Shown piece after piece: positions 833-61,702 of a DNA stretch of 62,094 bases. The stretch is from a virus. Under the pieces are notes generated by a model. That model ran no database searches and was not told the origin of the DNA. It worked only from the letters and a program-made list of their open reading frames with translations. The DNA lies in IMG/VR virus record IMGVR_UViG_3300042141_000119, positions 1-62,094 of that record. The stretch is one strand, 5' to 3'. Every line of letters starts with the position of its first letter. The stretch's first letter is position 1. A program made the translations under genes and the position numbers.

Positions 833-1573
833 ATGCCTGTTGTCTATTGCTATGGACGGGCCAGCACCAGCAGCCAGACGCTCACGGAGTCTCACCAGCG
901 GGCCGTGTGCGAGGAGCACGTCACTCGCTCGCTTATCCCCAGCGGCTACGCCTACGGCGGCTGGCTCTACGATTCCGCCACGAGCGGCAGCAAGCCGATG
1001 TTCGAGCGGGACGAGGGCCGCAAGCTCTGGGCTCTCGTGCAGCCGGGAGACAAGATCGTCTGGGCCAAGCTGGACCGGGCGTTCCGCTCTGTGCTGGACG
1101 CCTCGCAGACGATGCTGCTGCTCTCCAGAAAGGACGTTTCCTTCAACTCGCTGGACTTAGGGCTGGACACCAGCACGCCCATCGGCCGCTGCGTGTTCAC
1201 GATCCTCACGGCGTTCGCGGAGCTAGAGCTTGAGTTCATACGCCAGCGCACTCGTGACGGCCTGCGTGCCAAGAGCAAGAGCGGGAAGCCGACGGGGCGG
1301 CACGCACCAATCGGCTGGCGCAAGGTGGGTGCCAAGAAGGACAGCTACTACCTGCCAGACGCGAGCGAGCGTGAGCAGGTGGAGAGAATGGTCGCCATGC
1401 GGAAGGCCGGTGCCTCTCTGGAGCGGCTCACGCTCAACATGACTGGCGTGCGGAGAACGAACGGCAAGCGGTGGAACATCAACTCCATCTCGCGGGCACT
1501 CATAGCTGCTGAACGTCGCTATCCAAAATCGTTCTCAAGACCGACAAGGCGACGTCGAGCCGCCGCCGTATAG
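833..1573 (+). CDS. Serine recombinase (resolvase/invertase type)
   Basis: A 246-residue small serine recombinase. The N-terminal catalytic domain starts VVYCYGRAS with Arg9 and nucleophile Ser11. The conserved KLDR block is at 79-82, and the long helix carrying EFIRQRTRDGL, at 134-144, is typical of the resolvase dimer helix. A C-terminal helix-turn-helix-like and basic tail (RPTRRRRAAAV) would bind DNA. ATG 833 is chosen because a perfect AAGGAGGTGA lies just upstream; the frame stays open further upstream but has no such signal. Its 3' end overlaps the convergent sigma-factor gene by 74 bases. It is the last gene of the rightward unit. The phage also has a tyrosine integrase, so this enzyme may resolve multimers or invert DNA rather than integrate. 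Confidence 0.92.
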   Translation: MPVVYCYGRASTSSQTLTESHQRAVCEEHVTRSLIPSGYAYGGWLYDSATSGSKPMFERDEGRKLWALVQPGDKIVWAKLDRAFRSVLDASQTMLLLSRKDVSFNSLDLGLDTSTPIGRCVFTILTAFAELELEFIRQRTRDGLRAKSKSGKPTGRHAPIGWRKVGAKKDSYYLPDASEREQVERMVAMRKAGASLERLTLNMTGVRRTNGKRWNINSISRALIAAERRYPKSFSRPTRRRRAAAV

Positions 1574-2018
1574 TCCGCTGGTCGCAGCCGACTTGCTCCC
1601 CGATTTCGCGGAGAGACTGGCCCTTGTAGAACCGAAGCTGGATCAGTCTCCGCGACTTCGGGGGCAGTCGCGCTATGGCGGCGTGCAGCCTGCCAGACGC
1701 ATGGCTTTTGGAGGCGGCTAGATGCTCTGCCAACTCCATCGGAATCCTGTCTGGCGAACTGTACCGAAGCCCCCGATTGCGGTCGATTTCCCGCAGCAGG
1801 GCGTTGCGGACGGCGACAGAAAAGTAGGTGGTAATCTTCGACTTTTCTGCGTTGTACGTCCTGGCGGCACGGCAAAGCGCCAAGTACGCCACGCTCGTGG
1901 AGTCTATGGCGTCAAGCTGCTTTCGTAGGGTCGGGTAGCGAAGGCGAAAGGCGGCTATCGCCTTCGGGACGACGGCCACCGCCTGCTGTACCACCAACTG
2001 TTGTTCATCGGTCAGCAT
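1500..2018 (-). CDS. Sigma-70-like RNA polymerase sigma factor
   Basis: A 172-residue protein with the two domains of a minimal sigma factor. Residues 42-79 resemble region 2 (a helix, then TTYFSVAVRNALLREID, the core-binding and -10 recognition part). Residues 116-164 resemble region 4, with the helix-turn-helix SLREIGEQVGCDQRTIRRRL. It would bind host core RNA polymerase and redirect it to phage promoters. It is the distal gene of the leftward unit and converges on and overlaps the serine recombinase. No strong Shine-Dalgarno is visible before ATG 2018. A role in switching to late genes, or in reading the iterated sites of the rightward unit, is inference. Confidence 0.85.
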   Translation of the reverse strand: MLTDEQQLVVQQAVAVVPKAIAAFRLRYPTLRKQLDAIDSTSVAYLALCRAARTYNAEKSKITTYFSVAVRNALLREIDRNRGLRYSSPDRIPMELAEHLAASKSHASGRLHAAIARLPPKSRRLIQLRFYKGQSLREIGEQVGCDQRTIRRRLDVALSVLRTILDSDVQQL

Positions 2019-49966: not shown

Positions 49967-50276
49967 GCCGCTGATTGTCGGTGCGGAAAATGATGTAGAT
50001 AGTCATGGGAGCTTGGGAACGACCTGTTTCTGGAAACTTTTGGCGGGGGGAATGTAAGTAAGTGCGTTCGCACGCGGGGGGGCTCGGGGGCCGGTCCCTC
50101 GCGTGCGTTCCATCTACCCGCCGCAAAAGGACTTCCGTTTCACGCTTGCGACCGATAGCGGGAAACGGCCTGCCGAAACCCTTGTTTTCTCCGGTCCATC
50201 CCCTCTGCGGAGTCTGTCTTGTGTCAGCACGGAGACGACGAGTGATCGTCACTGTGACTGACACGGAGTCCCTGCC
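49967..50276. promoter_or_regulatory. Divergent control region between leftward and rightward units
   Basis: 310 bases without a convincing gene. It must hold promoters for the HNH/SSB side and the rightward unit, though I cannot pick convincing -35/-10 boxes. Contents: an AT-richer stretch near 49990-50060, an inverted repeat GCACGCG (50070-50076) with CGCGTGC (50100-50106) enclosing a G-rich loop, the first copy of the 15-bp element (50202-50216), and a nested hairpin GTGTCAG...CTGACAC (50221-50264) before the first small gene. Confidence 0.6.
50202..50216 (+). promoter_or_regulatory. 15-bp element, copy 1 (CCTCTGCGGAGTCTG)
   Basis: First copy, with no gene before it. Followed by the nested hairpin at 50221-50264 and the Shine-Dalgarno of the gene at 50277. 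The downstream bases TCTT.TGTC.GCAC are shared with copy 2 only. Confidence 0.8.
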
Positions 50277-50405
50277 ATGCACCGCCTCGTTCGACACTGC
50301 ATCCGTTCCTTCGATGCCCGCTACGCCATGTTCCTTGTCATCCACAATGGCGACACTTGGCGGGCTCTCGATTCGGCACTGATCGCAAGCGTGCCGATCC
50401 GCTGA
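50277..50405 (+). CDS. Small protein, first gene of the rightward unit
   Basis: 42 residues, MHRLVRHCIRSFDARYAMFL then VIHNGDTWRALDSALIASV. GGAG is eight bases before ATG 50277. A small basic then mixed protein without known relatives. As the first gene after the control region it is likely transcribed first after entry. Confidence 0.6.
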   Translation: MHRLVRHCIRSFDARYAMFLVIHNGDTWRALDSALIASVPIR

Positions 50406-50410
50406 TTCCG

Positions 50411-50425
50411 CCTCTGCGGAGTCTG
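50411..50425 (+). promoter_or_regulatory. 15-bp element, copy 2
   Basis: CCTCTGCGGAGTCTG, five bases after the stop of the 42-residue gene. Followed by the hairpin GCACCA-CGT-TGGTGC at 50436-50450 and then the next start. Confidence 0.85.
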
Positions 50426-50485
50426 TCTTTTGTCGGCACCACGTTGGTGCTGGCTGTCCCGTGTCTCTCACTGATGGAGTGTTCC

Positions 50486-50608
50486 ATGTTTCGCCGCCTG
50501 TCGTTCCACGAGATTTACAACACGATCCACGCTCACGAGTCGTGGCGGTGGGATCGCTGGGACTGTCTGTGGGTTTCGCTGGCAGTCTACGTCGATTCGA
50601 TGCCGTGA
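50486..50608 (+). CDS. Small Trp-rich protein
   Basis: 40 residues, MFRRLSFHEIYNTIHAHESW then RWDRWDCLWVSLAVYVDSMP, with five tryptophans. GGAG lies 6 bases before ATG 50486; an in-frame ATG at 50474 would destroy the spacing. It could associate with a membrane surface. No relatives known to me. Confidence 0.62.
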   Translation: MFRRLSFHEIYNTIHAHESWRWDRWDCLWVSLAVYVDSMP

Positions 50609-50612
50609 ATCG

Positions 50613-50627
50613 CCGCTGCGGAGTCTG
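50613..50627 (+). promoter_or_regulatory. 15-bp element, copy 3
   Basis: Exact consensus CCGCTGCGGAGTCTG, four bases after a stop codon. Followed by GCGGGG (50635-50640) pairing with CCCCGC (50654-50659) and then the start at 50715. Confidence 0.88.
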
Positions 50628-50714
50628 GATGGTAGCGGGGCTTGCTTCGGCTTCCCCGCCTCCACCCGCACTTCGCGGGACTGTTCGGTTGTTCTTTCAC
50701 TGAGGAGATTTCCC

Positions 50715-51164
50715 ATGACTGTTGCTGACATGAAGGCCGCTGTTGCTCTTGCCGTCGAGCAGGTTCTCGGACTGGTTCAGGCGGACGCGGCACCTCCGGC
50801 CCCTGCGGTGGACCCGACTCCCGCACCCGTGCGGAAGCGCAAGGGCAATCCCGAAGCCCTCAAGCGTTGGCGCGACGAGCAGAAGGCCGCGAAGGCGAGC
50901 GGCACGGCCAAGCCCGCGAAGGCCGCGAAGCCTGCGGCACGGCCCGCTGCGGAGTCGAAGAAGCAGACCCCGAAGCCCGGAACGTGGACGGTCAAGAAGC
51001 ACACCACGCAGAAGGGCGTGGAAGGCAAGATCGTCACCGTCGGGCCGTTCTCCGCGTGGCTCCCGACTGGCGATGCCGAGAAGGAACAGGCCGCCATCGA
51101 CGCGATCAACCTCGTGTTCCGCTCGACTGCGGCCGTCGATCTTGCGAAGGCCATTCGGGCCTAG
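50715..51164 (+). CDS. Basic Ala/Lys/Pro-rich protein
   Basis: 149 residues. A helical start (VADMKAAVALAVEQVLGLVQ), an Ala/Pro/Lys-rich histone-like central stretch (EALKRWRDEQKAAKASGTAK) and a folded C-terminal part GTWTVKKHTTQKGVEGKIVT. DNA or RNA binding is likely from composition. GAGGAGATTTCCC precedes the start. It contains a 13-base match to the 15-bp element (50944-50956). Confidence 0.68.
   Translation: MTVADMKAAVALAVEQVLGLVQADAAPPAPAVDPTPAPVRKRKGNPEALKRWRDEQKAAKASGTAKPAKAAKPAARPAAESKKQTPKPGTWTVKKHTTQKGVEGKIVTVGPFSAWLPTGDAEKEQAAIDAINLVFRSTAAVDLAKAIRA
50944..50956 (+). repeat. Partial 15-bp element inside a coding region
   Basis: CCGCTGCGGAGTC, identical to the first 13 bases of the element, in frame as Ala-Ala-Glu-Ser. 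May be chance from preferred codons. Confidence 0.4.
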
Positions 51165-51179
51165 TCGCTGCGGAGTCTG
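51165..51179 (+). promoter_or_regulatory. 15-bp element, copy 4
   Basis: TCGCTGCGGAGTCTG, directly after the TAG of the basic protein. Hairpin CACCCTG (51201-51207) with CAGGGTG (51222-51228) follows, then a 100-base leader to the next start. Confidence 0.85.
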
Positions 51180-51280
51180 ACTGACGACGGCTCACACGAC
51201 GCACCCTGTCGGCTCACGCTGGCAGGGTGTTCGCCTGCGCCGTTGCAGGAGTTCGTTTCCACCAACAGGAGAGTATCGCT

Positions 51281-51526
51281 ATGGCATCTGTGCCGACGTA
51301 CACGCCCGAAGATGCACCGCAGTGGGTCCGCGATGTAGTCGAGAACCTTCAACGCGAACACGACAAGCGCGTCGAGGAGTACACGAAGCTGGAGGATGCG
51401 CTTCCACGCGGACGCGAGAGGGACGCGATCCTCTTTGCGGCCAACACCCTCCGCGACACCGGGCACCCGCGCGATGCAAACATCCTTGAGCTTTACATGG
51501 AGCGGCTGGTCACGTTCGACGGCTGA
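51281..51526 (+). CDS. Hypothetical small protein
   Basis: 81 residues from ATG 51281 with AGGAGAG upstream. Charged and helical (VRDVVENLQREHDKRVEEYT, RDAILFAANTLRDTGHPRDA). No family recognised. Has its own element-plus-hairpin leader. Confidence 0.65.
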   Translation: MASVPTYTPEDAPQWVRDVVENLQREHDKRVEEYTKLEDALPRGRERDAILFAANTLRDTGHPRDANILELYMERLVTFDG

Positions 51527-51541
51527 CCGCTGTGGAGTCTG
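51527..51541 (+). promoter_or_regulatory. 15-bp element, copy 5
   Basis: CCGCTGTGGAGTCTG, one mismatch, directly after a TGA. Followed by two hairpins, the second with a T-run. Confidence 0.83.
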
Positions 51542-51590
51542 GGATACGGGGCAGGACTGACACTGCCCCCAATCCTGCACTCGCAGGCTG

Positions 51591-51620
51591 CACCCATCGC
51601 ACGTTGCGGTGGGTGTTTTT
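51591..51620 (+). terminator. Terminator-like hairpin in the leader of the next gene
   Basis: CACCCATCGCA pairs with TGCGGTGGGTG over 11 bp (one G-T) around CGT, then TTTTTG. Lies between copy 5 and the start at 51649, the position of an attenuator. Confidence 0.8.
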
Positions 51621-51648
51621 GTTTCCACGTTTCCATGAGGAGTTTCCC

Positions 51649-51882
51649 ATGACCCATCGTGACATCACAGCCGTTCGCAACAGCACGGGCCGCGTCGAGG
51701 CCGCAGTGTTCCCCGCAGACGGAGGCTTCTACTTCCTCGACGTTCGCTCTGACGCCCCGCCGGTCGGCCCGTTCCCCACGCGGGAGCGTGCGGCTGCGTC
51801 CGCCGACATCAACGTCGAACTCGACCGGGAACTGGACCGGATGCTGACGCCGATGGTCGGCAAGGACCGCTGCGTCCGCTGA
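51649..51882 (+). CDS. Hypothetical small protein
   Basis: 77 residues from ATG 51649 (GAGGAG upstream). Beta/alpha: DITAVRNSTGRVEAAVFPAD, GFYFLDVRSDAPPVGPFPTR and an acidic helix ADINVELDRELDRMLTPM. Two genes in a row share this leader, as the next start is 12 bases on. Confidence 0.65.
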   Translation: MTHRDITAVRNSTGRVEAAVFPADGGFYFLDVRSDAPPVGPFPTRERAAASADINVELDRELDRMLTPMVGKDRCVR

Positions 51883-51894
51883 AAGGAGCAACCC

Positions 51895-52083
51895 ATGATC
51901 GTCAAGGTCGAACAGTGCTACTGCGGTCACGACAAGTACCGGTTTCGACTGACGCTGCCAGACGGCAAGCGTGAGTTTGTGCCGGGCCGCGAGTGGACCC
52001 GCACAGTGGCGACGGACGCACTCAACGTACTGGAGCGTGTCTACGGAGCCAGACGTTCCCGCATCCGCTTTCGGCACGTTTAG
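51895..52083 (+). CDS. Hypothetical small protein
   Basis: 62 residues, VKVEQCYCGHDKYRFRLTLP, DGKREFVPGREWTRTVATDA and a basic end RRSRIRFRHV. AAAGGAG precedes ATG 51895. Its TAG is immediately followed by copy 6 of the element. Confidence 0.65.
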   Translation: MIVKVEQCYCGHDKYRFRLTLPDGKREFVPGREWTRTVATDALNVLERVYGARRSRIRFRHV

Positions 52084-52098
52084 CCGCTGCGGAGTCTG
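52084..52098 (+). promoter_or_regulatory. 15-bp element, copy 6
   Basis: Exact consensus directly after TAG, followed by ACTTTTGC and hairpin GGGGCCAG (52111-52118) with CTGGCCCC (52134-52141). Confidence 0.88.
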
Positions 52099-52168
52099 AC
52101 TTTTGCGAACGGGGCCAGTCGTCATGGTGGCGGCTGGCCCCGTCGCGTTTCACACGAGGAGGTTCTCG

Positions 52169-52486
52169 ATGATCGCTGCTGTTGAGCCCCGCGAATACTG
52201 CCTGTCACGCACTGGCGTGATCCAGAATCCGGGCATGTTCGAGGGGTGCATGTTGTGGGTGCCGTACTTCTGGGACATCGCCCTCGACGGTCTGTACGAC
52301 GAGCTTCCGGGCGGCGTCCTGTCAGTGACGGTCGAGAAAGAGGACAAGGACTACTTCGCCTCTCTCGTGCGGGACAACCGCGATCCCACGCTCGACCAGC
52401 CCCTGCGGGAAGTGGCCCGCATGATCCGCCGCCGCCGACGCATCCGCCTTGTGCAGCGTGACGACGGCTTCGTCTGCGAAGCGTAG
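52169..52486 (+). CDS. Hypothetical protein
   Basis: 105 residues from ATG 52169 with GAGGAGG upstream (an earlier in-frame ATG overlaps the hairpin and is unlikely). Contains MFEGCMLWVPYFWDIALDGL and a basic helix EVARMIRRRRRIRLVQRDDG. No family recognised. Confidence 0.65.
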   Translation: MIAAVEPREYCLSRTGVIQNPGMFEGCMLWVPYFWDIALDGLYDELPGGVLSVTVEKEDKDYFASLVRDNRDPTLDQPLREVARMIRRRRRIRLVQRDDGFVCEA

Positions 52487-52495
52487 CGGAAATCA

Positions 52496-52510
52496 CCGCT
52501 GCGGAGTCTT
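52496..52510 (+). promoter_or_regulatory. 15-bp element, copy 7
   Basis: CCGCTGCGGAGTCTT, nine bases after the stop. Followed by a GCCGTCGGC...GCCGTCGGC near-palindrome at about 52518-52540. Confidence 0.83.
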
Positions 52511-52571
52511 GATTCTGGCCGTCGGCGCGTTGCCGTCGGCTGTCCCTTGTCCCTGTTTCTGAGGAGCTTCT

Positions 52572-52739
52572 ATGCGCACGAAGATTGCCAACACGATCCG
52601 TTTCATTCGCCTCTCCGACGCCGCCCGCAAGCTGGGGGCACAGTCCAAGCGTCAGTTCGTGGCCGACTTCCGCACGCTCACCAACAAGGAGCGACGCGAG
52701 ATCGCGGAACTCCTGAGTGAGAAGGAGGGCCGACAGTGA
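52572..52739 (+). CDS. Small basic protein
   Basis: 55 residues, MRTKIANTIRFIRLSDAARK then SKRQFVADFRTLTNKERREI. Helical and basic; could bind nucleic acid. GAGGAGC precedes the start; the GTGA overlap at its end couples it to the following gene. Confidence 0.65.
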   Translation: MRTKIANTIRFIRLSDAARKLGAQSKRQFVADFRTLTNKERREIAELLSEKEGRQ

Positions 52740-52972
52740 AGGCCAGCTACGAGGCGATGCGGCACGGCCTGCGGATGCTGCGGTCACACTTTGCCGTCCT
52801 TTCGGGCGAAGAGATGGGCCCATCGCAGTCATCGTGGCAGGACGTAGCCGCAGACTGTGCCGCAACGCTGCGGCAACTGGCGGAACTGCTCGATGCGGCA
52901 CGCGACGGGAAGGCCGAACCCTTCCTTGTGTTCCCGTCGCTGGACGACTTGGACGGGGAGGCTGACGCATGA
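52736..52972 (+). CDS. Hypothetical helical protein
   Basis: 78 residues from GTG 52736 (GTGA overlap). YEAMRHGLRMLRSHFAVLSG, DVAADCAATLRQLAELLDAA and an acidic end (FPSLDDLDGEADA). Coupled in a three-gene set with its neighbours. Confidence 0.62.
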   Translation: MKASYEAMRHGLRMLRSHFAVLSGEEMGPSQSSWQDVAADCAATLRQLAELLDAARDGKAEPFLVFPSLDDLDGEADA

Positions 52973-53181
52973 GGTACGACGTTCTGTCGCCCGATGGAAT
53001 CTCAATCCATCACGAGGACACCTACCCAAGCCGTGCCGCTGCGGAGTCTGCACTGCGGGAGTGGGCCAAGAGGTTCGAGTTTCAAGGCTTTTATTCCACG
53101 AGTCGGCGGGAGCGTATCCCGCTGGACGAACTGCCCGGCAGGTGCCGGATCGTGGAAGCAGCCACAGATGACGACGACTGA
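52969..53181 (+). CDS. Hypothetical small protein containing an element copy
   Basis: 70 residues from an ATGA overlap. Pattern RYDVLSPDGISIHHEDTYPS, AAAESALREWAKRFEFQGFY, acidic tail TDDDD. The AAAES part is encoded by an exact copy of the 15-bp element (53036-53050). Similar phage proteins of unknown function interpret this region as a small alpha/beta fold. Confidence 0.65.
   Translation: MRYDVLSPDGISIHHEDTYPSRAAAESALREWAKRFEFQGFYSTSRRERIPLDELPGRCRIVEAATDDDD
53036..53050 (+). repeat. 15-bp element, exact copy inside a coding region
   Basis: CCGCTGCGGAGTCTG, full consensus, coding for part of Ala-Ala-Ala-Glu-Ser-Ala. Preceded by GTG rather than a stop, without a following hairpin. Confidence 0.6.
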
Positions 53182-53197
53182 TCGTCGCGGCGGATAG

Positions 53198-53212
53198 CCG
53201 CTGCGGAGTCTG
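53198..53212 (+). promoter_or_regulatory. 15-bp element, copy 9
   Basis: Exact consensus 16 bases after a stop, followed by GTTTTTGC and a terminator-like hairpin, then the amidoligase start. Confidence 0.88.
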
Positions 53213-53222
53213 GTTTTTGCAG

Positions 53223-53255
53223 GGCCGTCCCAACGTGGGGCGGCCTTTTCTTTTT
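53223..53255 (+). terminator. Terminator-like hairpin before the amidoligase gene
   Basis: GGCCGTCCC pairs with GGGGCGGCC over 9 bp around AACGT, followed by TTTTCTTTTT. It lies upstream of the amidoligase start at 53275 and after element copy 9. Confidence 0.85.
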
Positions 53256-53274
53256 CACCACTGAGGTACGAGCG

Positions 53275-54405
53275 ATGCCAACTGAGGAACAGTACGACGA
53301 GAACGGGTGGGACGCACTCGGCCGCCACAGAGACACGGGAAACACTTACGACCCGGATGGCTACGACATCGACGGCAACAGCCGATGCGACAACGGCGAC
53401 TGCGACGACGACACCTGCGAACGCTGCCACCCGGAGCCGGAGCCGGAGCCAGAGGACGACGAGACGTTCGATGAACAGCTGCACGCTTACAACGCGAAGG
53501 CCACCGACATTCACGGCTGGTTCTACGCCCCGATGCGGCTGGCAAACGGCGGCTGGTCAGCGGACAGAACGCTGTACGCAGGCCACGAGATTGAGATGTA
53601 CTCGGACAACGAGGACTATGACGACGTTCTGACAGTCCTTCGCCAGCTTGACACGCCGTACCGAAACCTCAACCCGCAGACGCGAACGAACCGCTGTGCG
53701 ATTGCCAAGCACGACGGCTCGCTCGACGTTCAAGACGGCGGCTTCGAGGCCGTGACCGTGCCGCTCACACGGGCACAGACCTACGGCATCTTCGAGTCGT
53801 TCAAGATCGTCGGCGACGGCAACTGCTCGGCGTGGAACATGGGCAACGAGGTGGGGCATCACATCCACCTGTCTCGTGCAGCCATCGGCCCGCTGACGCT
53901 CGGCAAGCTGCTCGTGTTCGCCAATGCGGACGCCAATCAGAGGTTCGTGGAGCGTGTGGCCTGCCGCCCGGCAGAGTTCAACGGCTTCTCCTCGAAGAAG
54001 CTGACTGACGCCATGCGGGAGGAGCCGAACGGCGACAGGTACGAGGTCATCAACGTGACCACGCACACGGTCGAGTTCCGCATGTTCAAGTCGAACCTCA
54101 TGACCAGAGCGATCCTCAAGAACTACGAGTTCGCCGTGTCGCTCACGCGGTACTGCGAGCAAGTGACGCACGGCATGGACACAGAGCCGGAGTGGAGCAG
54201 CCACCCGCTGCACTACTTGCAGTACCGGCGATGGGTCGCGGAACACCACGCCGAGTATCCGTACCTGCACCAGTTCTTCCTGGCTCACCCGTCAATGAGC
54301 CAGAACTACCGCTCCAGCAAGGGGCTCAAGGCCAACGCCATCCCGAAGGATCGCAGCCCCAAGTTCGCGTTCATCCGCACGCTGTCGGCCGCTGGCGGTG
54401 CCTGA
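53275..54405 (+). CDS. Amidoligase (COOH-NH2 ligase, glutamine-synthetase-like)
   Basis: 376 residues. The amidoligase signatures are all present: GHEIEM at 103-108, KHDGSL at 145-150 then GFEAVTVPL, GHHIHLS at 194-200, and TVEFRMF at 265-271 with preceding VIN. They supply the metal and ATP ligands for making an amide bond between a carboxylate and an amine. A 60-residue N-terminal extension is acidic with four Cys (CDNGDCDDDTCERC) and may bind metal. The next gene is a class II glutamine amidotransferase, which could supply ammonia. The target (a peptide, protein or cell-wall component) is unknown. GAGG precedes the start. Confidence 0.88.
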   Translation: MPTEEQYDENGWDALGRHRDTGNTYDPDGYDIDGNSRCDNGDCDDDTCERCHPEPEPEPEDDETFDEQLHAYNAKATDIHGWFYAPMRLANGGWSADRTLYAGHEIEMYSDNEDYDDVLTVLRQLDTPYRNLNPQTRTNRCAIAKHDGSLDVQDGGFEAVTVPLTRAQTYGIFESFKIVGDGNCSAWNMGNEVGHHIHLSRAAIGPLTLGKLLVFANADANQRFVERVACRPAEFNGFSSKKLTDAMREEPNGDRYEVINVTTHTVEFRMFKSNLMTRAILKNYEFAVSLTRYCEQVTHGMDTEPEWSSHPLHYLQYRRWVAEHHAEYPYLHQFFLAHPSMSQNYRSSKGLKANAIPKDRSPKFAFIRTLSAAGGA

Positions 54406-54445
54406 CACTCTTCCACCACCAACCACCCACACAGGAGACACACGC

Positions 54446-55291
54446 ATGTGCCTTGCAATCTACAAGCCCGCCGACACCGCCCCTGACTGGACCGCCTACG
54501 AGAACGGCCACCTACAGAACAGCGACTCGTGGGGGTTTGCCGCAGTCGTTGACGGACAGATCGTCACGCGATGCGGCATCGGGAAGTTCACAGAGTTCCG
54601 CGAAGCCTTCGAGCCGTATGCCGACAAGCAGGCCATCATTCACTTCCGATGGGCCACGCACGGCAAGAAGGACGAGGCGAACTGCCACCCGTTCATGGTC
54701 AGTGCGCACCTCGCCATGATCCACAACGGTGTCATCCGCATCAAGTGCGACGAGAACCCGTCCATGTCTGACACTTGGCACTTCAATGAACTGGTTCTCA
54801 AGCCGATGCACGAGCGCGACCCCGACTTCTACGGTCGGCCCGATGTCATCTTCTCGCAGGAACTGGCACACGACAGCAGCAAGTTCGTGTTCCTGCGGGC
54901 CGACGGCGACTACCAAATCTGGAACGCCGATGACGGGGAGTGGGAGCGCGACGGCCACTGGTACAGCAACGACTCCTACGAGGGCTACGGGATGCGGGGT
55001 GCCAGCCGGTCGGCGTCAACCACAAAGAGCAGCATCGGCTTCGATGCAGCCATCCGCTCAGACGCACCGACTTCGCGGTACGACGACGAGGACGAGAAGC
55101 TGTGGCGACGCGAGGCTGAGGCTGTCTGCGTGTCTGCCGGTTACTACGACGAGGATGCGGACGAGACAGACCACTACACGCAGATTCGCATTGACGATCT
55201 TCGGACGTACGGAATGTCGGAGTCTGCCATCGAGGAAGTCCTCAAGATTTTCGGGGCGTGTGGCCTCGAAGCACTGCACGACGCTTACTGA
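54446..55291 (+). CDS. Class II glutamine amidotransferase
   Basis: 281 residues starting MCLAIYKP; removal of Met would expose Cys2 as the N-terminal nucleophile. Other GATase II elements: WGFAAV near 29-34, HFRWATHG at 66-73, HPF at 81-83 and IHNGVI at 92-97. It would hydrolyse glutamine to release ammonia. No synthetase domain is fused; the last 90 residues are acidic with a C-terminal helical part. The partner is probably the amidoligase immediately upstream. CAGGAG precedes ATG 54446. Confidence 0.9.
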   Translation: MCLAIYKPADTAPDWTAYENGHLQNSDSWGFAAVVDGQIVTRCGIGKFTEFREAFEPYADKQAIIHFRWATHGKKDEANCHPFMVSAHLAMIHNGVIRIKCDENPSMSDTWHFNELVLKPMHERDPDFYGRPDVIFSQELAHDSSKFVFLRADGDYQIWNADDGEWERDGHWYSNDSYEGYGMRGASRSASTTKSSIGFDAAIRSDAPTSRYDDEDEKLWRREAEAVCVSAGYYDEDADETDHYTQIRIDDLRTYGMSESAIEEVLKIFGACGLEALHDAY

Positions 55292-55301
55292 TGGAGCAGG
55301 C

Positions 55302-55520
55302 ATGGGCGCGTTCTGGTTTCACTACAACAAGCCCGCATCGCGGGCGGCGGGCCATCCGGTAATGACGGTCCACCACAGGGACGCCTGCATCTTGGTTCGC
55401 AAGATCGTGTGTTCGGTCCCGGTGCGTAGCCGGGAGCGCAGGACACAGCCCCATGTCGTGATCGCTGGCAGAGGACTCGTCCGCATCGCTGGCGACACGG
55501 CATACATCGAGAAGGAATGA
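55302..55520 (+). CDS. Hypothetical small protein after the GATase
   Basis: 72 residues from ATG 55302 with GGAGCAGG upstream. GAFWFHYNKPASRAAGHPVM, VHHRDACILVRKIVCSVPVR and VIAGRGLVRIAGDTAYIEKE suggest a small beta-rich protein. Third gene of the amidoligase sub-operon; could be its substrate or a partner. Confidence 0.65.
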   Translation: MGAFWFHYNKPASRAAGHPVMTVHHRDACILVRKIVCSVPVRSRERRTQPHVVIAGRGLVRIAGDTAYIEKE

Positions 55521-55541
55521 CTGGCGAACGGCGGGGATTTC

Positions 55542-55556
55542 CCGCTGCGGAGTCTG
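55542..55556 (+). promoter_or_regulatory. 15-bp element, copy 10
   Basis: Exact consensus 21 bases after the stop of the amidoligase sub-operon, followed by the terminator-like hairpin at 55566. Confidence 0.88.
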
Positions 55557-55565
55557 GTTAGTAGC

Positions 55566-55600
55566 GGCCGGTGGCATGGTGCCATCGGCCTTTCTCTTTT
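55566..55600 (+). terminator. Terminator-like hairpin before the clamp-like gene
   Basis: GGCCGGTGGCA pairs with TGCCATCGGCC over 11 bp (one G-T) around TGG, then TTTCTCTTTT. Lies between element copy 10 and the Shine-Dalgarno GGAGG. Confidence 0.87.
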
Positions 55601-55612
55601 CTGGAGGTTCAC

Positions 55613-56353
55613 ATGAAGATTCCTGCGTTCATCAAACGACTGGCGGCAGTGTGCGACAGGGAGTCGGCACGGTTCGCACTCGGCGGCGTCAAGTGCGAGA
55701 GCGATGGCAAGACCGCCAAGCTCACGGCAACAGACGGCCGCATCCTTGCCACTGTTCACTGGAAGGACGACGACCCGGCGACGGTGGACATGGTTGCCGA
55801 CGCTCGGCAACTCTCGTCGCTCCCAGCGAAGGCTTTCCTGCATCCGAAGGGCGTGTGGTTCGACGGCTCGACGCTGCGAGCCACCGTCGGGACGGACAAG
55901 ACTGCCACAAAGGTCGATGCAATCGACGGCAGGTTCCCGCAGTACGAGAAAGTCATGGGCATCCATGACGACCCGGCCGGGTACGTCTCCGTCAGGCTGG
56001 ACGCCGCCCTTCTCGGCAAGCTGTGCGACCTGTCGCACGCCATGAACGACGACCAGCACAAGGACAAGGGGCTGACGCTGTTCGTGAAGGATCAGCAGTC
56101 GTGCGTGTTCGCAACCACCGTCAGCGAGGACGGGCAGCACGTTGCCCGCTTCGCCATCATGCCGCTGGCGGCAGACGACGGCAGCTACAAGCACGTTTTC
56201 CCGGCCCGACCCGGTGCGGAGTCTGGGAATGGGGAGCCGCAGCCAGCCCCGCCGCCGGAGCTCATGGACGGTGACGCCATCGCAGAGGCGGTGACCCGCG
56301 AGCCCGAGCCGCTCGGCTCTCTCGTGGAGGACGGAAACCTAGCCGCAGTCTGA
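55613..56353 (+). CDS. Sliding-clamp-like (DnaN-type fold) protein
   Basis: 246 residues. FIKRLAAVCDRESARFALGG, then KTAKLTATDGRILATVHW and IDGRFPQYEKVMG are the repeating pattern of beta-clamp domains (a strand with LxATDGxxL and the D..FP.Y motif). About two clamp domains long, so shorter than a bacterial DnaN (three domains). A Pro-rich C-terminal tail follows (PQPAPPPELMDG). It may tether host polymerase or compete with the host clamp. Own element-plus-terminator leader. Confidence 0.75.
   Translation: MKIPAFIKRLAAVCDRESARFALGGVKCESDGKTAKLTATDGRILATVHWKDDDPATVDMVADARQLSSLPAKAFLHPKGVWFDGSTLRATVGTDKTATKVDAIDGRFPQYEKVMGIHDDPAGYVSVRLDAALLGKLCDLSHAMNDDQHKDKGLTLFVKDQQSCVFATTVSEDGQHVARFAIMPLAADDGSYKHVFPARPGAESGNGEPQPAPPPELMDGDAIAEAVTREPEPLGSLVEDGNLAAV
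56211..56225 (+). repeat. 15-bp element, near-exact copy inside a coding region
   Basis: CCGGTGCGGAGTCTG, one mismatch, within the clamp-like gene (codes Gly-Ala-Glu-Ser-Gly). No hairpin follows. Confidence 0.5.
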
Positions 56354-56368
56354 CCGCTGCGGAGTCTT
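56354..56368 (+). promoter_or_regulatory. 15-bp element, copy 12
   Basis: CCGCTGCGGAGTCTT directly after the TGA of the clamp-like gene. The following hairpin (56369-56388: AGTTGC/GCAACT) encloses the Shine-Dalgarno AAGGGAGG in its loop. Confidence 0.87.
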
Positions 56369-56390
56369 AGTTGCAAGGGAGGGCAACTCA

Positions 56391-56486
56391 ATGTCACACG
56401 GATGGACACACACGGAGATCGAACTGTTCCTGCTCATGTCGCTGGTGTTCATGAAAGCACTGGCCGTATGGGCACACCTCGACTGA
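56391..56486 (+). CDS. Very small hydrophobic protein
   Basis: 31 residues, MSHGWTHTEIELFLLMSLVF then MKALAVWAHLD; a single possible membrane span. Shine-Dalgarno GGGAGG lies in the loop of a hairpin two bases before ATG 56391. Short but well placed; first gene of its sub-operon. Confidence 0.5.
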   Translation: MSHGWTHTEIELFLLMSLVFMKALAVWAHLD

Positions 56487-56504
56487 CACGCAAGGAGGAA
56501 GCAC

Positions 56505-56783
56505 ATGCCGGAACTGTCGCCACGACAGCGAGACATGCTGGAGTTCATCGCCCGCAGCACTGAGGCGAACGGATACCAGCCGTCGTACGCGGAGATCGCC
56601 AAGCACTTCGGGTGGGCCAGCCGTGCTTACTGCTCGGCCATCACGCGAAGGCTGGCGAAGCTGGGAGTCGCACGCAACAAGGGCATGAGAGCCCTGTCGT
56701 TCGACTGGAAGTCTTACCTCGACAGCGGAGGCGGTCGTCGTCCGACCGCTCGCACCCGCCGTCGCCACCCCATTGCGCTATAG
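56505..56783 (+). CDS. Stand-alone LexA-like winged-helix protein
   Basis: 92 residues. ELSPRQRDMLEFIARSTEAN, GYQPSYAEIAKHFGWASRAY, then ITRRLAKLGVARNKGMRAL is the LexA DNA-binding domain. There is no serine peptidase domain; the protein ends in a basic tail (GGGRRPTARTRRRHPIAL). It could bind phage or host operators without SOS cleavage and is the clearest repressor or regulator candidate in the rightward unit. AAGGAGG precedes the start. Confidence 0.82.
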   Translation: MPELSPRQRDMLEFIARSTEANGYQPSYAEIAKHFGWASRAYCSAITRRLAKLGVARNKGMRALSFDWKSYLDSGGGRRPTARTRRRHPIAL

Positions 56784-56791
56784 GTGAACCG

Positions 56792-56986
56792 ATGTATACT
56801 CTGCCTCACAGAGCGATCCCGACGGCCACTCTGGAACTACGGCCACGCGAGATCGAACTCCTCATCCGCTCCCTTGCGGAGTCAATCGAGGAGGAGTCCG
56901 AGTACGGCGACGAGGCGAAGGCGGCGGAACTCGCCGTGCTGCAACGCCGACTCGCGAACGTGGACAAGTCACTCATCACTCACTAA
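56792..56986 (+). CDS. Hypothetical small helical protein
   Basis: 64 residues from ATG 56792 (AGGTGA before). TLELRPREIELLIRSLAESI then EAKAAELAVLQRRLANVDKS; a helical hairpin is likely. Between the LexA-like gene and a larger unknown gene. Confidence 0.63.
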   Translation: MYTLPHRAIPTATLELRPREIELLIRSLAESIEEESEYGDEAKAAELAVLQRRLANVDKSLITH

Positions 56987-56997
56987 GGAGGTTTCCC

Positions 56998-57864
56998 ATG
57001 ACTGGCAGCATCTCAATCGGCGCACGCTCCGGCGGCGTCTGCATCCTCAACGCAGCGTCCGCCCTGCGTGACACGGTGTTCGCCGCCGCTGACTCCGTCG
57101 GCTGCGGCCAGTACGTCCCGAAGCAGCCCGCCACCACCACGACGCTCAGTCTGGCGATGCGGGCCGTCGGCACCACGCTGTACGGCAAGCGGCGGAAGCA
57201 GCCCATCGTTGCGAGGCACATCGACGGCGATGCCTTCGAGTGTGTGCGGGTCGTGCCCGGCAGCGACAGGAACACCTACCACCACCTGTTCTCTGCCAGC
57301 ATCGACCGGCAGTGGAACGTGACAGTGCTGGCCCACAACCACGACGCACACTCGTGGACTCTGGACTCGTCCTTGTCCAGTGCGGTGGTCACGATGCGGG
57401 ACTACCTGCCTTCGCCTGTCGTGTCGCAGGTCGCAGTCAAGATTCTTTCCTCATGGAAGGGCGTGCTGCTCAAGGACGACGGCGGCGTGTGGTTCCTTGC
57501 GGACGAGCATCTCGACAAGTACCGCACGCTTGCCGCCGGTCTGCGGCAGAACGGTCGTGGCCCGAAGTTCACGCTGACCACGTTCCCCATCGACGCCAAC
57601 CCTGACACGGTGGCCCACGTTATCCAGAAGGTGCGTGACACCGTGAACGAGGGCGTCAATCAGATCATGCAGGACGTTCTGGAGGCGACCGGCGGAATGA
57701 ACGACCGCTCCATCAACGTCCGACTGTCCCGTGCCAACAAGCTGCTCGCCCTCGTGGAGCAGTACCAGTCTCTGACCGGCATCGCCATGCCGGAACTGAC
57801 CGATGCAATCGAGCAGTGCAAGCAGGCGGTTGCGGTCAATCGCCTGCTCGCCGCTTCTGTCTGA
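56998..57864 (+). CDS. Unknown conserved-looking protein
   Basis: 288 residues. SISIGARSGGVCILNAASAL, DSSLSSAVVTMRDYLPSPVV, then GVLLKDDGGVWFLADEHLDK and a C-terminal helical part (VRDTVNEGVNQIMQDVLEAT). Alpha/beta architecture without recognised catalytic motifs. Strong AAGGAGG. One of the larger genes of the rightward unit; its neighbours are regulators and the MoxR pair. Confidence 0.65.
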   Translation: MTGSISIGARSGGVCILNAASALRDTVFAAADSVGCGQYVPKQPATTTTLSLAMRAVGTTLYGKRRKQPIVARHIDGDAFECVRVVPGSDRNTYHHLFSASIDRQWNVTVLAHNHDAHSWTLDSSLSSAVVTMRDYLPSPVVSQVAVKILSSWKGVLLKDDGGVWFLADEHLDKYRTLAAGLRQNGRGPKFTLTTFPIDANPDTVAHVIQKVRDTVNEGVNQIMQDVLEATGGMNDRSINVRLSRANKLLALVEQYQSLTGIAMPELTDAIEQCKQAVAVNRLLAASV

Positions 57865-57899
57865 CGTAACCCATTACCCACCAGAAAAGGACTTCACCC

Positions 57900-58286
57900 A
57901 TGCGTGCCATGCGTATCAACGTGACCGAGTTCGTGAAGGAGTACACCGCCGCCGCCGAAGCCAACCTCTCCTCAAGGGAGTTGGCCGACCTGCTTGGCAT
58001 GAGCCAGGCCGGAGTCTGGCACCGGGCCGACCAGTGCCGCAAGCACGGCATTGAACTGCCGGTCCTGCGAGGCGGCCGGTTGCTGTCGCCGCAAAGCCGG
58101 GCCCGCAGGAGGGCCAAGTACCGGAAGAACTGGCAGCAGAATCGCAAGCCGGAGGCCGCGTCGAAGTCGCAGGCTCAGGCTGCGGTCATCGACGCGGTGG
58201 CTGACCGCGTGGCAGACAAGGTGTTCGCCCGGCTGCGTGACACGCTCCGGTTCCAGTTCTTCGTAGGCCCGGAAATCCCGGCATAA
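57900..58286 (+). CDS. Helix-turn-helix protein
   Basis: 128 residues from ATG 57900 (AAAAGGAC). N-terminal NVTEFVKEYTAAAEANLSSR then ELADLLGMSQAGVWHRADQC is a helix-turn-helix; a basic linker (RARRRAKYRKNWQQNRKPEA) and a C-terminal helical part follow. It could be a regulator of the rightward unit. Ends two bases before element copy 13. Confidence 0.72.
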   Translation: MRAMRINVTEFVKEYTAAAEANLSSRELADLLGMSQAGVWHRADQCRKHGIELPVLRGGRLLSPQSRARRRAKYRKNWQQNRKPEAASKSQAQAAVIDAVADRVADKVFARLRDTLRFQFFVGPEIPA

Positions 58287-58288
58287 AC

Positions 58289-58303
58289 CCGCTGCGGAGT
58301 CTT
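58289..58303 (+). promoter_or_regulatory. 15-bp element, copy 13
   Basis: CCGCTGCGGAGTCTT two bases after TAA, followed by the G-run hairpin at 58310-58341 and the MoxR start. Confidence 0.87.
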
Positions 58304-58309
58304 GTTCTC

Positions 58310-58370: not shown

Positions 58371-59474
58371 ATGGCCCGTACCACTCTCGGCAACAGCCCT
58401 GCGTTCCTCGCCGCTCAGGTTGTCCCCACGCTCGTGCGTGGCGGCACTGGCGTCGGCAAGTCCTCAACGTGGGAAGCTCTTGCCGCCGCACTCGAGCGGA
58501 CGTTCGTCCCGCTGCTTGGTGCAACGCACCTGCCCGAAGACTTCTCGGGCTACCCCACCCCGAACCACAAGGAAGGCATCGTGAACATGATGCCGACATC
58601 GTGGGTCAAGAAGACGATGGACGGCAAGGCGCTCGTCCTCGTGGACGAGGTGACGAACGTGCCATCGGCAACGCAGGCTGGCCTGCTGTCGGTCATCTCG
58701 GAGCGTCGGGTTGGCGACTACGTCATGCCCGAATCCACGATGGTCGTCGGTGCCTGCAACCCGCCGGAACTGTGCCCCAATGCGGTGCCTCTGGCACCTG
58801 CGATGCGGGCCCGGTTCTTCCACCATGACTGGGTGGTGGACTACGACCACTGGTTCTCCGGCCTGCGGGCTGGCTGCGAGTGGACGGCACCGGAGTTCCC
58901 GATTGTCCCTTCGCACTGGCGGGACTTCCTGCCGCAGTTCGGATCGCTCGCTGAGGCTTTCCTCCGGGCGGCACCCGACTGCCGCGAGAAGCTGCCGACC
59001 GACGACGAGACGATGTCTTTCCCGAACTGCCGCACATGGACGTACCTCGTCAAGTGCTTCGCTGCCGCAGCCGCCTGCGACTACGACCGCGAGCATCCCA
59101 TGTACAAGGCTCTGGCTCTTGGCAACGTGGGCGAGGCGGTTGGTGGCGAGTTCCTCCGCTACTGGCGTAACCTCGACCTCGCCAACCCGGAGTCGTTCCT
59201 CTCGGGAGACGAGCAGTACCAGTACGTCAAGCGTCCAGACGCGAACATCTGCCTGCTCACTGGCTTGGTCAAGGGGCTGCGCGACAACACCAGCCCGGAC
59301 CGCTGGGTCAATGCGGCGAAGGTGTTCGTGACTGTAGGAGAGCAGGAGATCGAGTCGTTCCTCATGCAGTTCAAGTCCTTCTGGCGTCCCATCAAGGACG
59401 GCGGCGTGCGGCCTGACGGCTGGACTCCCCCGAAGGATGTGCTTGCCAAGCTGATGGCACTAGTTCAGTCGTGA
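58371..59474 (+). CDS. MoxR-type AAA+ ATPase
   Basis: 367 residues. Walker A GGTGVGKS at 24-31, pore/helical insert GYPTPNHKEGIVNMMPTSWV, Walker B LVLVDE at 88-93, sensor I Asn130 in GACNPPE, and an alpha-helical lid. MoxR ATPases work with VWA-domain partners to insert metals or remodel proteins; the VWA protein is four genes further on (60245). Shine-Dalgarno GAGGAG. Confidence 0.9.
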   Translation: MARTTLGNSPAFLAAQVVPTLVRGGTGVGKSSTWEALAAALERTFVPLLGATHLPEDFSGYPTPNHKEGIVNMMPTSWVKKTMDGKALVLVDEVTNVPSATQAGLLSVISERRVGDYVMPESTMVVGACNPPELCPNAVPLAPAMRARFFHHDWVVDYDHWFSGLRAGCEWTAPEFPIVPSHWRDFLPQFGSLAEAFLRAAPDCREKLPTDDETMSFPNCRTWTYLVKCFAAAAACDYDREHPMYKALALGNVGEAVGGEFLRYWRNLDLANPESFLSGDEQYQYVKRPDANICLLTGLVKGLRDNTSPDRWVNAAKVFVTVGEQEIESFLMQFKSFWRPIKDGGVRPDGWTPPKDVLAKLMALVQS

Positions 59475-60049: not shown

Positions 60050-60248
60050 CTGGACGGCGGATCAGGCAGAAGAAGTTCGGCAACTGTTTTTAGATCGCAT
60101 GGAATATCTCGCAACCAGCCGCGACCGTGCCGCCGTCCGCAATGACTCGGATGAAGTCCGGCTACTTTCCGGGTTCCTAGACGATGTGCGGGAACTCCTC
60201 CGCCTCTTGGAGGCGGCATACTCCACGCCAGAAGGGAGGACTGAATGA
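60036..60248 (+). CDS. Hypothetical small helical protein
   Basis: 70 residues from ATG 60036 (GAGGAGC eight bases before; GTG 60030 is possible). AEEVRQLFLDRMEYLATSRD, RLLSGFLDDVRELLRLLEAA. Its end overlaps the VWA gene start (ATGA). Confidence 0.63.
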   Translation: MPMIDWTADQAEEVRQLFLDRMEYLATSRDRAAVRNDSDEVRLLSGFLDDVRELLRLLEAAYSTPEGRTE

Positions 60249-61702
60249 CCCCACGACAGCTACTGGGCCAAGCACGGGTGCATACCTTCGAGTACGTCCC
60301 GTACCTTGCGTCCTACATCTACAGCCTGCGAGAGCAGGAGACGCCGGGCATCGGCACGGCTGCGGTGGACGAGGCGGGCAACCTCTACTGGTGCCCGAAG
60401 TTCGTTGCTGAAATCGGCAAGGAGCAGACGGCCTACCTCGTGGCACACGAGGCGCTGCACCTTGTCTACGACCACCACTCCCGTTCACGGGAGATCATCG
60501 GAGAACACCCGGACGAGTTCACTAAGTACGTCTGCAACGTGGCGGGCGATCTCGTGATCGAGCAGACGCTCCACATGATGCGACACCTGCGACCGGAAGG
60601 GGCAGTCTACTTGGGGTGCGAGATTGCCTCGTGGGGCATCAAGCTCGACTTCCCCGAGAACAAGTCGATGCAGGAGTATTACCGCCTCATCCTTGAGAAG
60701 CTCAAGGGCAGGCCGCAGCCACAACCAGAGTCAACATCGCAACAACAGGAGAGCAGCAATGGAAGCGACGACAGCCCTGACGGTTCGGGAGACGGCACTG
60801 GCGACGACGACGGCGAGGGCACTGACGATAACGACGACGGCCAGCCCGGCGGACAGGGCAAGGGCGAGCAGGACGATGGCTCGCAAGCTACGCCTGCAAA
60901 CGGAGCGGGAGCGACTGCGTCTGGGAAGGGCGAGGCATCGCCCAAGCCGGGCGCTCCGGGCTCTGGCGGCTCGTGCGCGGACGGCCAGCCCCGCCCCTAC
61001 GAGATAGACGACGACGGCTCGTGGGAGACATGGGGCAACGACATGGCAGCAGCGAAGGCTGAGGAGGCCATCGCTGAGTACGAGAAGCAGCACGGCATCG
61101 GCTCAGTTCCAGGCGGCGTCAAGCAGGCGCTCCGCTGCAAGCTGCGGCCGCAGCCCGACCCGTTCGACCAGTTGCGGTCTGCCGTGTGCAGCAGCGTGGC
61201 ATCGCCGGTCGGCGGCAGGGACTTCTCTCGCCGCCGCCGGTCCCGCAAGCAGCCGCCGGGCGACAACGACCCGCTCCTGCATGGCCGCATCACGGTGCAG
61301 CCGCACGCGGTCGTGATCGTTGATACCTCTGGGTCCATGATGCACCGGGACACGACGGCCAGAGCGCTGGCTGTCATCGGTCAGGGCATCCGCAAGCTGT
61401 CTCGGGTGAAGGTGTTCTGTGCCGACACGCACGTTCGGTCGCACGCTTCGGTCGCCACGACCAAGACGTTCGACTGGTGCGGCGGCGGCGGGACGGACAT
61501 GGCACGTGCCATCGAGGAGGTGGACCGGACCGACAAGCCCGACTCCATCATCCTCATCACCGATGCGGAAACCGGCTGGCCCGACAAGAAGCCGCACGCC
61601 CGCGTCGTCGTGGCCTACACCGGATCGGTCGGTAGTCCCTATCACCAGCGAATCCCGTCGTGGTGCCGCACGATAGCACTTGCAGGAGGAAGCGATGCCT
61701 AA
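60245..61702 (+). CDS. VWA-domain protein with metallopeptidase-like N-terminus (DUF2201 type)
   Basis: 485 residues. N-terminal domain with HEALH (HExxH) at 68-72 and a second half RPEGAVYLGCEIASWGIKLD resembles putative metallopeptidases of the DUF2201 group. A very acidic, Gly/Asp/Ser-rich linker spans about residues 160-230. C-terminal VWA domain: MIDAS motif DTSGSM at 360-365, with TDMARA and ITDAETG as further MIDAS parts. This arrangement normally partners a MoxR ATPase, here at 58371. Role in the infected cell unknown; chelation or remodelling of a target is likely. Confidence 0.87.
   Translation: MTPRQLLGQARVHTFEYVPYLASYIYSLREQETPGIGTAAVDEAGNLYWCPKFVAEIGKEQTAYLVAHEALHLVYDHHSRSREIIGEHPDEFTKYVCNVAGDLVIEQTLHMMRHLRPEGAVYLGCEIASWGIKLDFPENKSMQEYYRLILEKLKGRPQPQPESTSQQQESSNGSDDSPDGSGDGTGDDDGEGTDDNDDGQPGGQGKGEQDDGSQATPANGAGATASGKGEASPKPGAPGSGGSCADGQPRPYEIDDDGSWETWGNDMAAAKAEEAIAEYEKQHGIGSVPGGVKQALRCKLRPQPDPFDQLRSAVCSSVASPVGGRDFSRRRRSRKQPPGDNDPLLHGRITVQPHAVVIVDTSGSMMHRDTTARALAVIGQGIRKLSRVKVFCADTHVRSHASVATTKTFDWCGGGGTDMARAIEEVDRTDKPDSIILITDAETGWPDKKPHARVVVAYTGSVGSPYHQRIPSWCRTIALAGGSDA

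What the first reader, a model, noticed from the sequence alone, without database searches (positions are those of the whole stretch)
53275..55520. Amidoligase paired with class II glutamine amidotransferase
An amidoligase with all its motifs is followed by a separate Ntn-type GATase II and a 72-residue protein, all in one element-bounded sub-operon. Such pairs have been predicted to make amide or isopeptide modifications of peptides or cell-wall components. In a phage they might modify phage or host proteins or the envelope to block superinfection or host defence. The small third gene could be the modified peptide.
Basis: partly seen in the sequence, partly recalled or inferred. Interest (0 to 1): 0.85.

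Follow-up and report, generated by a model that had tools for sequence, protein, structure and literature searches.

The report
Phage amidoligase with glutaminase partner
A phage carries two adjacent genes that together look like an enzyme using glutamine and ATP to put an amide on an acid group, a pair already described in other phages; the small third gene beside it looks like a separate folded protein rather than the pair's substrate peptide.

Summary
Two of the three genes form a real module. Window 53275-54405 (+) encodes a glutamine-synthetase-fold amidoligase (AL): catalytic-motif residues are invariant or nearly so in 42 aligned relatives, and its model matches YbdK, glutamate-cysteine ligase and glutamine synthetase. 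54446-55291 (+) encodes a class II glutaminase (GAT) with Cys2, Arg68, Thr71, His72, Asn94 and Asp109 invariant. They are tightly linked: 26 of 27 AL-selected viral loci have an adjacent GAT; 76 of 80 GAT-selected loci have an adjacent AL. The 72-residue third gene is not part of the module: it directly follows GAT only in near relatives, lies 0.7-1.6 kb away in others, occurs in records without AL, and is predicted as a compact fold (pLDDT 95.7). Best mechanism: GAT frees ammonia from glutamine and AL uses ATP to amidate a peptide carboxylate, perhaps in the cell wall; the target is untested. The pair is published in phages (PMC10580990, PMC5498523). This is its minimal form: no GGACT or PF14395 gene was found. 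Known kind, modest interest.

The parts
53275..54405 (+). Amidoligase AL, 376 aa, GS fold over about residues 94-376
   Evidence: E105, E107, D147, E158, G194, H196, A229, R231, E267, R269, F271 invariant in 42 rows; model pLDDT 86.2; GS-superfamily fold matches
53275..53454 (+). N-terminal part of AL (about residues 1-60): short G-Y/F-D-x-x repeats and a Cys cluster (C38, C43, C48, C51)
   Evidence: Repeat number 1 to 12 by my pattern in 16 relatives, 2 in the window; C38 invariant, C43, C48 and C51 at least 90% in 10 rows. Zinc binding is a guess
54446..55291 (+). Class II glutaminase GAT, 281 aa, N-terminal Cys after Met
   Evidence: GlmS-type match over residues 27-98; C2, R68, T71, H72, G73, N94, G95, D109 invariant in 10 rows
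55302..55520 (+). 72-residue third gene: neighbour in the same element-bounded stretch, not part of the module
   Evidence: Linkage not general; compact model pLDDT 95.7
53198..53213 (+). Repeated element, exact copy, upstream boundary; hairpin with T-run at 53223-53245
   Evidence: hairpin read
55542..55557 (+). Repeated element, exact copy, downstream boundary; hairpin with T-run at 55566-55590
   Evidence: hairpin read

Best explanation
The pair is a split, glutamine-dependent amide synthetase. GAT loses its Met, uses Cys2 as an N-terminal nucleophile and hydrolyses glutamine to ammonia. AL, a glutamine-synthetase-fold ligase, uses ATP and divalent metal to turn a carboxylate of its target into an acyl phosphate, and the ammonia attacks it to give a primary amide. 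The target is probably a peptide carboxylate, more likely on the cell envelope (peptidoglycan stem peptide) than on a protein; the result would be altered wall chemistry during infection. Shown: sequence, motifs, predicted fold, linkage. Inferred from family knowledge: both half-reactions and the ammonia hand-over. Not shown: target and benefit (my estimate for the wall target alone is about 0.4).
For: GS-superfamily motif residues invariant in 42 diverse ALs and GS-superfamily fold. Class II glutaminase residues invariant with a GlmS-type match. Adjacent GAT in 26 of 27 AL-selected loci, in both gene orders; adjacent AL in 76 of 80 GAT-selected loci. No other family was seen to travel with the pair outside the window's own lineage. 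A ligase that joined an amine to an acid would not need a glutaminase, so an obligate glutaminase points to ammonia as the amine (inference). Named phages with a detectable AL infect Mycobacterium, Methylophilales, Clostridioides and Acinetobacter, all with peptidoglycan (recalled).
Against: No activity, substrate or complex is shown. Two AL loci lack a detectable GAT (L009 in a partial genome, L137) and L118 has GAT without AL. L087 has only 832 nt upstream and no AL. The wall enzymes that accompany AL in published cassettes (GGACT, PF14395) are absent here, so the wall role does not carry over automatically. The pair lies among replication-type genes, not next to a recognised lysis gene.
Confidence: 0.6

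Rival explanations
1. The pair amidates a protein (phage or host), on Asp/Glu side chains or a C-terminus, with the Cys-rich and repeat N-terminus of AL recognising it.
For: AL carries an N-terminal extension with a Cys cluster and repeats of variable number; CxxC columns also appear in the 42-row consensus. Foldseek matches include PafA and Dop, which act on proteins.
Against: YbdK and glutamate-cysteine ligase, which act on small molecules, rank higher by VIA Z; no protein target is indicated.
Confidence: 0.2
2. Auxiliary metabolism: the pair makes a small-molecule amide or adjusts host nitrogen use, as suggested for phage ZRK32 (PMC10945688, passages).
For: GS fold and glutaminase are both nitrogen-metabolism folds.
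Against: AL is far from true glutamine synthetase (10-16% identity in the structural alignments). Glutamine plus ATP to an amide consumes nitrogen already assimilated (inference).
Confidence: 0.12
3. The pair modifies the 72-residue third protein.
For: It lies 10 nt downstream of GAT inside the same element-bounded stretch, and directly behind GAT in L016, L017 and L041 too.
Against: Predicted as a compact fold at pLDDT 95.7. It lies 0.7-1.6 kb from the pair in L018, L020 and L024-L028. Five of 15 loci carrying it have no AL or GAT, and no AL in their records, which may be fragments. Many AL-selected loci have no copy nearby.
Confidence: 0.05

Closest known systems
AL-GATase pair of Methylophilales phages MEP401/MEP402 and of the Marvin-group mycobacteriophages
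   Same: Two adjacent genes in the same order, AL then class II GAT; homologous by tblastn and profile; published as such for MEP401/402 (PMC10580990, passages)
   Different: AL about 24-25% identical over the matched part; the window's AL has the repeat array at its N-terminus; different neighbours
Phage peptidoglycan-modification cassettes (RIO1/PSA-HP1, LUZ24-like, phiEco32 as cited)
   Same: Amidoligase plus class II glutaminase among early or DNA-metabolism genes (PMC5498523, PMC3890496, passages)
   Different: Those also carry an ATP-grasp enzyme, a second ligase and GGACT/AIG2; GGACT and PF14395 were not found in the window
YbdK / plant glutamate-cysteine ligase / glutamine synthetase (fold)
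   Same: GS-superfamily fold, Z 11.3, 10.9 and about 10
   Different: 10-16% identity; those are not paired with a glutaminase (recalled)
MurT/GatD of Staphylococcus aureus
   Same: Works alike: two genes amidate a peptidoglycan carboxylate (PMC3267633, start of abstract in a search listing)
   Different: Mur-ligase-type and class I glutaminase folds (recalled): analogy, not homology

Membership tests
GS-superfamily phage amidoligase (Amidoligase_2-like) | Catalytic motif residues E-x-E, D-G-S-L, E, H-x-H, E-x-R | tested here: met
   E105, E107, D147, E158, H196, E267, R269 invariant; S149, L150, H198 at least 90% in 42 rows. Roles of the residues recalled from glutamine synthetase
GS-superfamily phage amidoligase (Amidoligase_2-like) | GS fold | tested here: met
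   Predicted model only: Foldseek top rows GS superfamily; VIA Z up to 11.5 over residues 96-376
Pfam PF12224 Amidoligase_2 | Window protein itself over Pfam's curated cut-off | tested here: not met
   12.5 bits against 22
Pfam PF12224 Amidoligase_2 | Homology through intermediate sequences | tested here: met
   L028 and L007, homologous to the window protein (tblastn), pass the cut-off at 29.7 and 30 bits; of the 10 proteins scanned 2 pass, 5 match below it, 3 do not match
Class II glutamine amidotransferase (Ntn hydrolase) | Cys directly after the start Met, R-x-x-T-H-G, N-G and Asp | tested here: met
   C2, R68, T71, H72, G73, N94, G95, D109 invariant in 10 rows
Class II glutamine amidotransferase (Ntn hydrolase) | Glutaminase activity and removal of Met1 | not testable with these tools
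   needs biochemistry
Phage peptidoglycan-modification cassette (full form) | GGACT/AIG2 gene (PF06094) | tested here: not met
   None in the window or in 14 related pair-bearing records; control rang in 9 of 14 genomes
Phage peptidoglycan-modification cassette (full form) | Second ligase COOH-NH2_lig (PF14395) | tested here: not met
   0 of 15 records (its control genomes silent); 3 of 10 other records gave it
Phage peptidoglycan-modification cassette (full form) | ATP-grasp ligase | tested here: inconclusive
   No ATP-grasp among the 23 window proteins scanned with Pfam; the rest of the window was not scanned
RiPP-like peptide-modification system | Linked, unfolded precursor peptide | tested here: not met
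   The linked small protein is a predicted compact fold and not constantly linked

The most novel reading that the evidence does not exclude
In this phage lineage the amidoligase carries an array of short G-Y/F-D-x-x repeats of very variable number (1 to 12 by my pattern) ahead of a four-Cys cluster, where other phage amidoligases show only Cys-rich segments. The acidic array could be the enzyme's own amide acceptor or a target-capture tail, which would make the pair a self-modifying or polymer-binding enzyme rather than a plain wall amidase.
Probability: 0.08. Interest if true: 0.55.

Novelty: new member of a known kind. Interest (0 to 1): 0.3.

Why it matters
The pair recurs across very different phages, two Erysipelotrichaceae MAG contigs and a mycobacterial plasmid, yet in the passages I read nobody had tested its chemistry. 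The window's two-gene form, without the other cassette enzymes, is a good choice for finding out what the amidoligase and glutaminase do on their own. Showing that the third gene is a bystander removes a misleading lead.

Tried and rejected
Third gene as precursor peptide: rejected. Fold search of the third gene: no PDB match at E 0.001; in the viral library one match at E 2.4e-6, without a name, so its function stays unknown. Sequence search of its family against the PDB found nothing.

Haloarchaeal viruses as a counter-example to a cell-wall target (their hosts lack peptidoglycan, recalled): ChaoS9 has a GATase II gene behind ORF41. ORF41 shows similar motifs by eye, but Pfam found nothing and hhalign gave probability 0.8 on its 0-100 scale and P 0.068. 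Inconclusive, not used.

Host: the A1 search of genome contigs gave only two distant Erysipelotrichaceae MAG contigs, both later found to carry an AL and a GAT side by side; the window's host stays unknown. Megablast of window 20001-44000 (24 of 62 kb) against named phages gave no match. A PDB sequence search with A4 gave one meaningless match. AL-GAT fusions: none. Neighbour clustering showed conserved neighbours essentially within the window's own lineage, in a list that also holds many shadow ORFs. Iyer 2009 and Mageeney 2012 are not held; I know them here only through papers that cite them.

Rows dropped: A4, the structure input, uses the window plus 41 loci chosen from 57 AL stretches that remained of 105 after 85% dereplication; loci of the phages collection were left out because the structure tool does not take them. 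The distance correlation uses 63 of 122 loci after dereplication at 80% AL identity, and 60 shuffles; the 122 count some contigs more than once.

Full report
What is there. The window is a 62,094-base virus record with a 127-base end repeat and tailed-phage genes: portal, major head protein, helicase, exonuclease, ERF, SSB, a sigma-70-type factor, an AAA (MoxR-like) ATPase and a DUF2201 protein.

The amidoligase. Alone, the 376-residue protein scores below Pfam's PF12224 cut-off (12.5 against 22 bits) and gives phrog_16683 at 3e-4 and phrog_2443 (amidoligase) at 0.03. Relatives settle it. In 10 viral rows the motif residues are invariant. In 42 rows, some only 20% identical to the window, E105, E107, D147, E158, G194, H196, A229, R231, E267, R269 and F271 are invariant, and S149, L150 and H198 are at least 90%. 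Of 10 related proteins scanned, 2 (L028, L007) pass the PF12224 cut-off, 5 match below it, and 3 (L018, L027, and the ChaoS9 gene L011, which may be no relative) do not match. The AlphaFold model (mean pLDDT 86.2) matches GS-superfamily structures: Foldseek first gamma-glutamylmethylamide synthetase (E 1.8e-4), then PafA, YbdK, Dop and GS; VIA Z 11.5 (1tt4), 11.3 (YbdK), 10.9 (plant glutamate-cysteine ligase) and about 10 (GS).

The glutaminase. The 281-residue protein starts Met-Cys and matches GlmS over residues 27-98 (NCBIfam 1.3e-13; PDB 1xff 1.9e-8). C2, R68, T71, H72, G73, N94, G95 and D109 are invariant in 10 rows. The roles of these residues in GlmS are recalled.

Linkage of the two. 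Of 27 viral loci found with the AL alignment alone, 26 have a GAT next to it on the same strand, 22 as AL-GAT and 4 as GAT-AL; the exception, L044, ends at the edge of its sequence right after AL. Of 80 loci found with the GAT alignment, 76 have an AL next to it; L080 and L111 are cut within the GAT, L087 has 832 nt upstream and no AL, and L118 has about 5 kb upstream and no AL. The two sets share contigs; all loci with a pair, 122 with repeats, fall into 63 groups at 80% AL identity. AL and GAT distances correlate (r 0.62; largest of 60 shuffles 0.11), which shared phage descent can also cause. Two AL loci among named phages lack a detectable GAT in about 8.5 kb: L009 (Microcoleus phage, partial genome) and L137 (Clostridioides phage AR1086-1). 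The pair also lies in two Erysipelotrichaceae MAG contigs (L135, L136) and on a Mycobacterium plasmid (L138).

The third gene. It is well conserved (57-96% identity to the window in the other 11 rows) and under purifying selection (dN/dS 0.14-0.16). Of 15 loci found with it, 10 hold the pair and 5 (L021, L022, L023, L029, L030) do not. The five records gave no AL either, though they may be fragments. It follows GAT directly only in the window's near relatives (L016, L017, and L041 from the AL search). In L018, L020 and L024-L028 it is 0.7-1.6 kb away, and in L018, L020 and L026 further copies of the element stand between. Its model is compact with pLDDT 95.7. I therefore read it as a neighbour, not as the module's substrate peptide.

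Which version of the system. No GGACT (PF06094) was found in the window or in the 14 related pair-bearing records searched; the one hit among 18 records was in a record without AL, and 9 of 14 control genomes rang. No PF14395 was found in 15 records, while three records of other lineages gave it strongly. The window has the minimal two-gene form, as MEP402 and the Marvin group do near their pairs.

Mechanism. From the families: GAT makes ammonia from glutamine, AL activates a carboxylate with ATP, and the product is a primary amide. Sequence and fold support the two parts; coupling and target are inferred. Named phages with a detectable AL infect Mycobacterium, Methylophilales, Clostridioides and Acinetobacter, all with peptidoglycan (recalled), which fits a wall target but does not test it.

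In print. PMC10580990 (passages) reports amidoligase and GATase in MEP401, MEP402 and over 30 related genomes, and cites Iyer 2009 for a cell-wall role that prevents superinfection in phiEco32, and Mageeney 2012 for Marvin. PMC5498523 (passage) describes a seven-gene peptidoglycan-modification cassette. PMC3890496 (passages) lists an amidoligase, GATase, ATP-grasp enzyme and AIG2 protein in UFV-P2; PMC3517423 (passage) mentions both genes in phage tf. PMC10945688 (passages) reads them as nitrogen-metabolism genes in the planctomycete phage ZRK32. PMC7824862 (passages) has the word only in a reference title. The Iyer and Mageeney papers themselves were not held.

Verdict. Real, well conserved, and a new member of a published kind. 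The one unusual feature is the N-terminal repeat array in this lineage's AL: by my pattern 1 to 12 copies in 16 proteins, 2 in the window. Pfam named no repeat in the five lineage members scanned.

Noticed in passing
window 50202-58304, + strand: An element CCGCTGCGGAGTCTG recurs, mostly between genes of the early-type block, often followed by a GC-rich hairpin and then a ribosome site and start codon; copies stand between genes of related phages too. It could be a promoter, an attenuator or a processing signal.
   Followed up: partly
window 1500-2018, - strand: The phage encodes its own sigma-70-type factor, a possible reader of the repeated element if that is a promoter (guess).
   Followed up: no
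window 58371-59474 and 60245-61702, + strand: An AAA (MoxR-like) ATPase and a DUF2201 metallopeptidase/VWA-like protein lie close together and are conserved near the pair in related phages.
   Followed up: no
window 55302-55520; relatives in L016-L029: The 72-residue protein is a well-conserved phage family with a confident model, no PDB fold match at E 0.001 and an unnamed viral match. Function unknown.
   Followed up: partly
L083, L086, L092-L094; L088: Larger phage records carry richer sets: two AL-like genes and two GAT genes, with PF14395 in the three such records searched (L083, L086, L092); L088 has two complete AL-GAT pairs.
   Followed up: partly
L138:2584-4256: A Mycobacterium intracellulare plasmid carries the same AL-GAT pair.
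   Followed up: no
L011:2923-4576: Halobacterium phage ChaoS9 has a GATase II behind a gene with GS-like motifs by eye but no profile support. If that gene is a GS-fold ligase, the pair exists in a host without peptidoglycan.
   Followed up: partly
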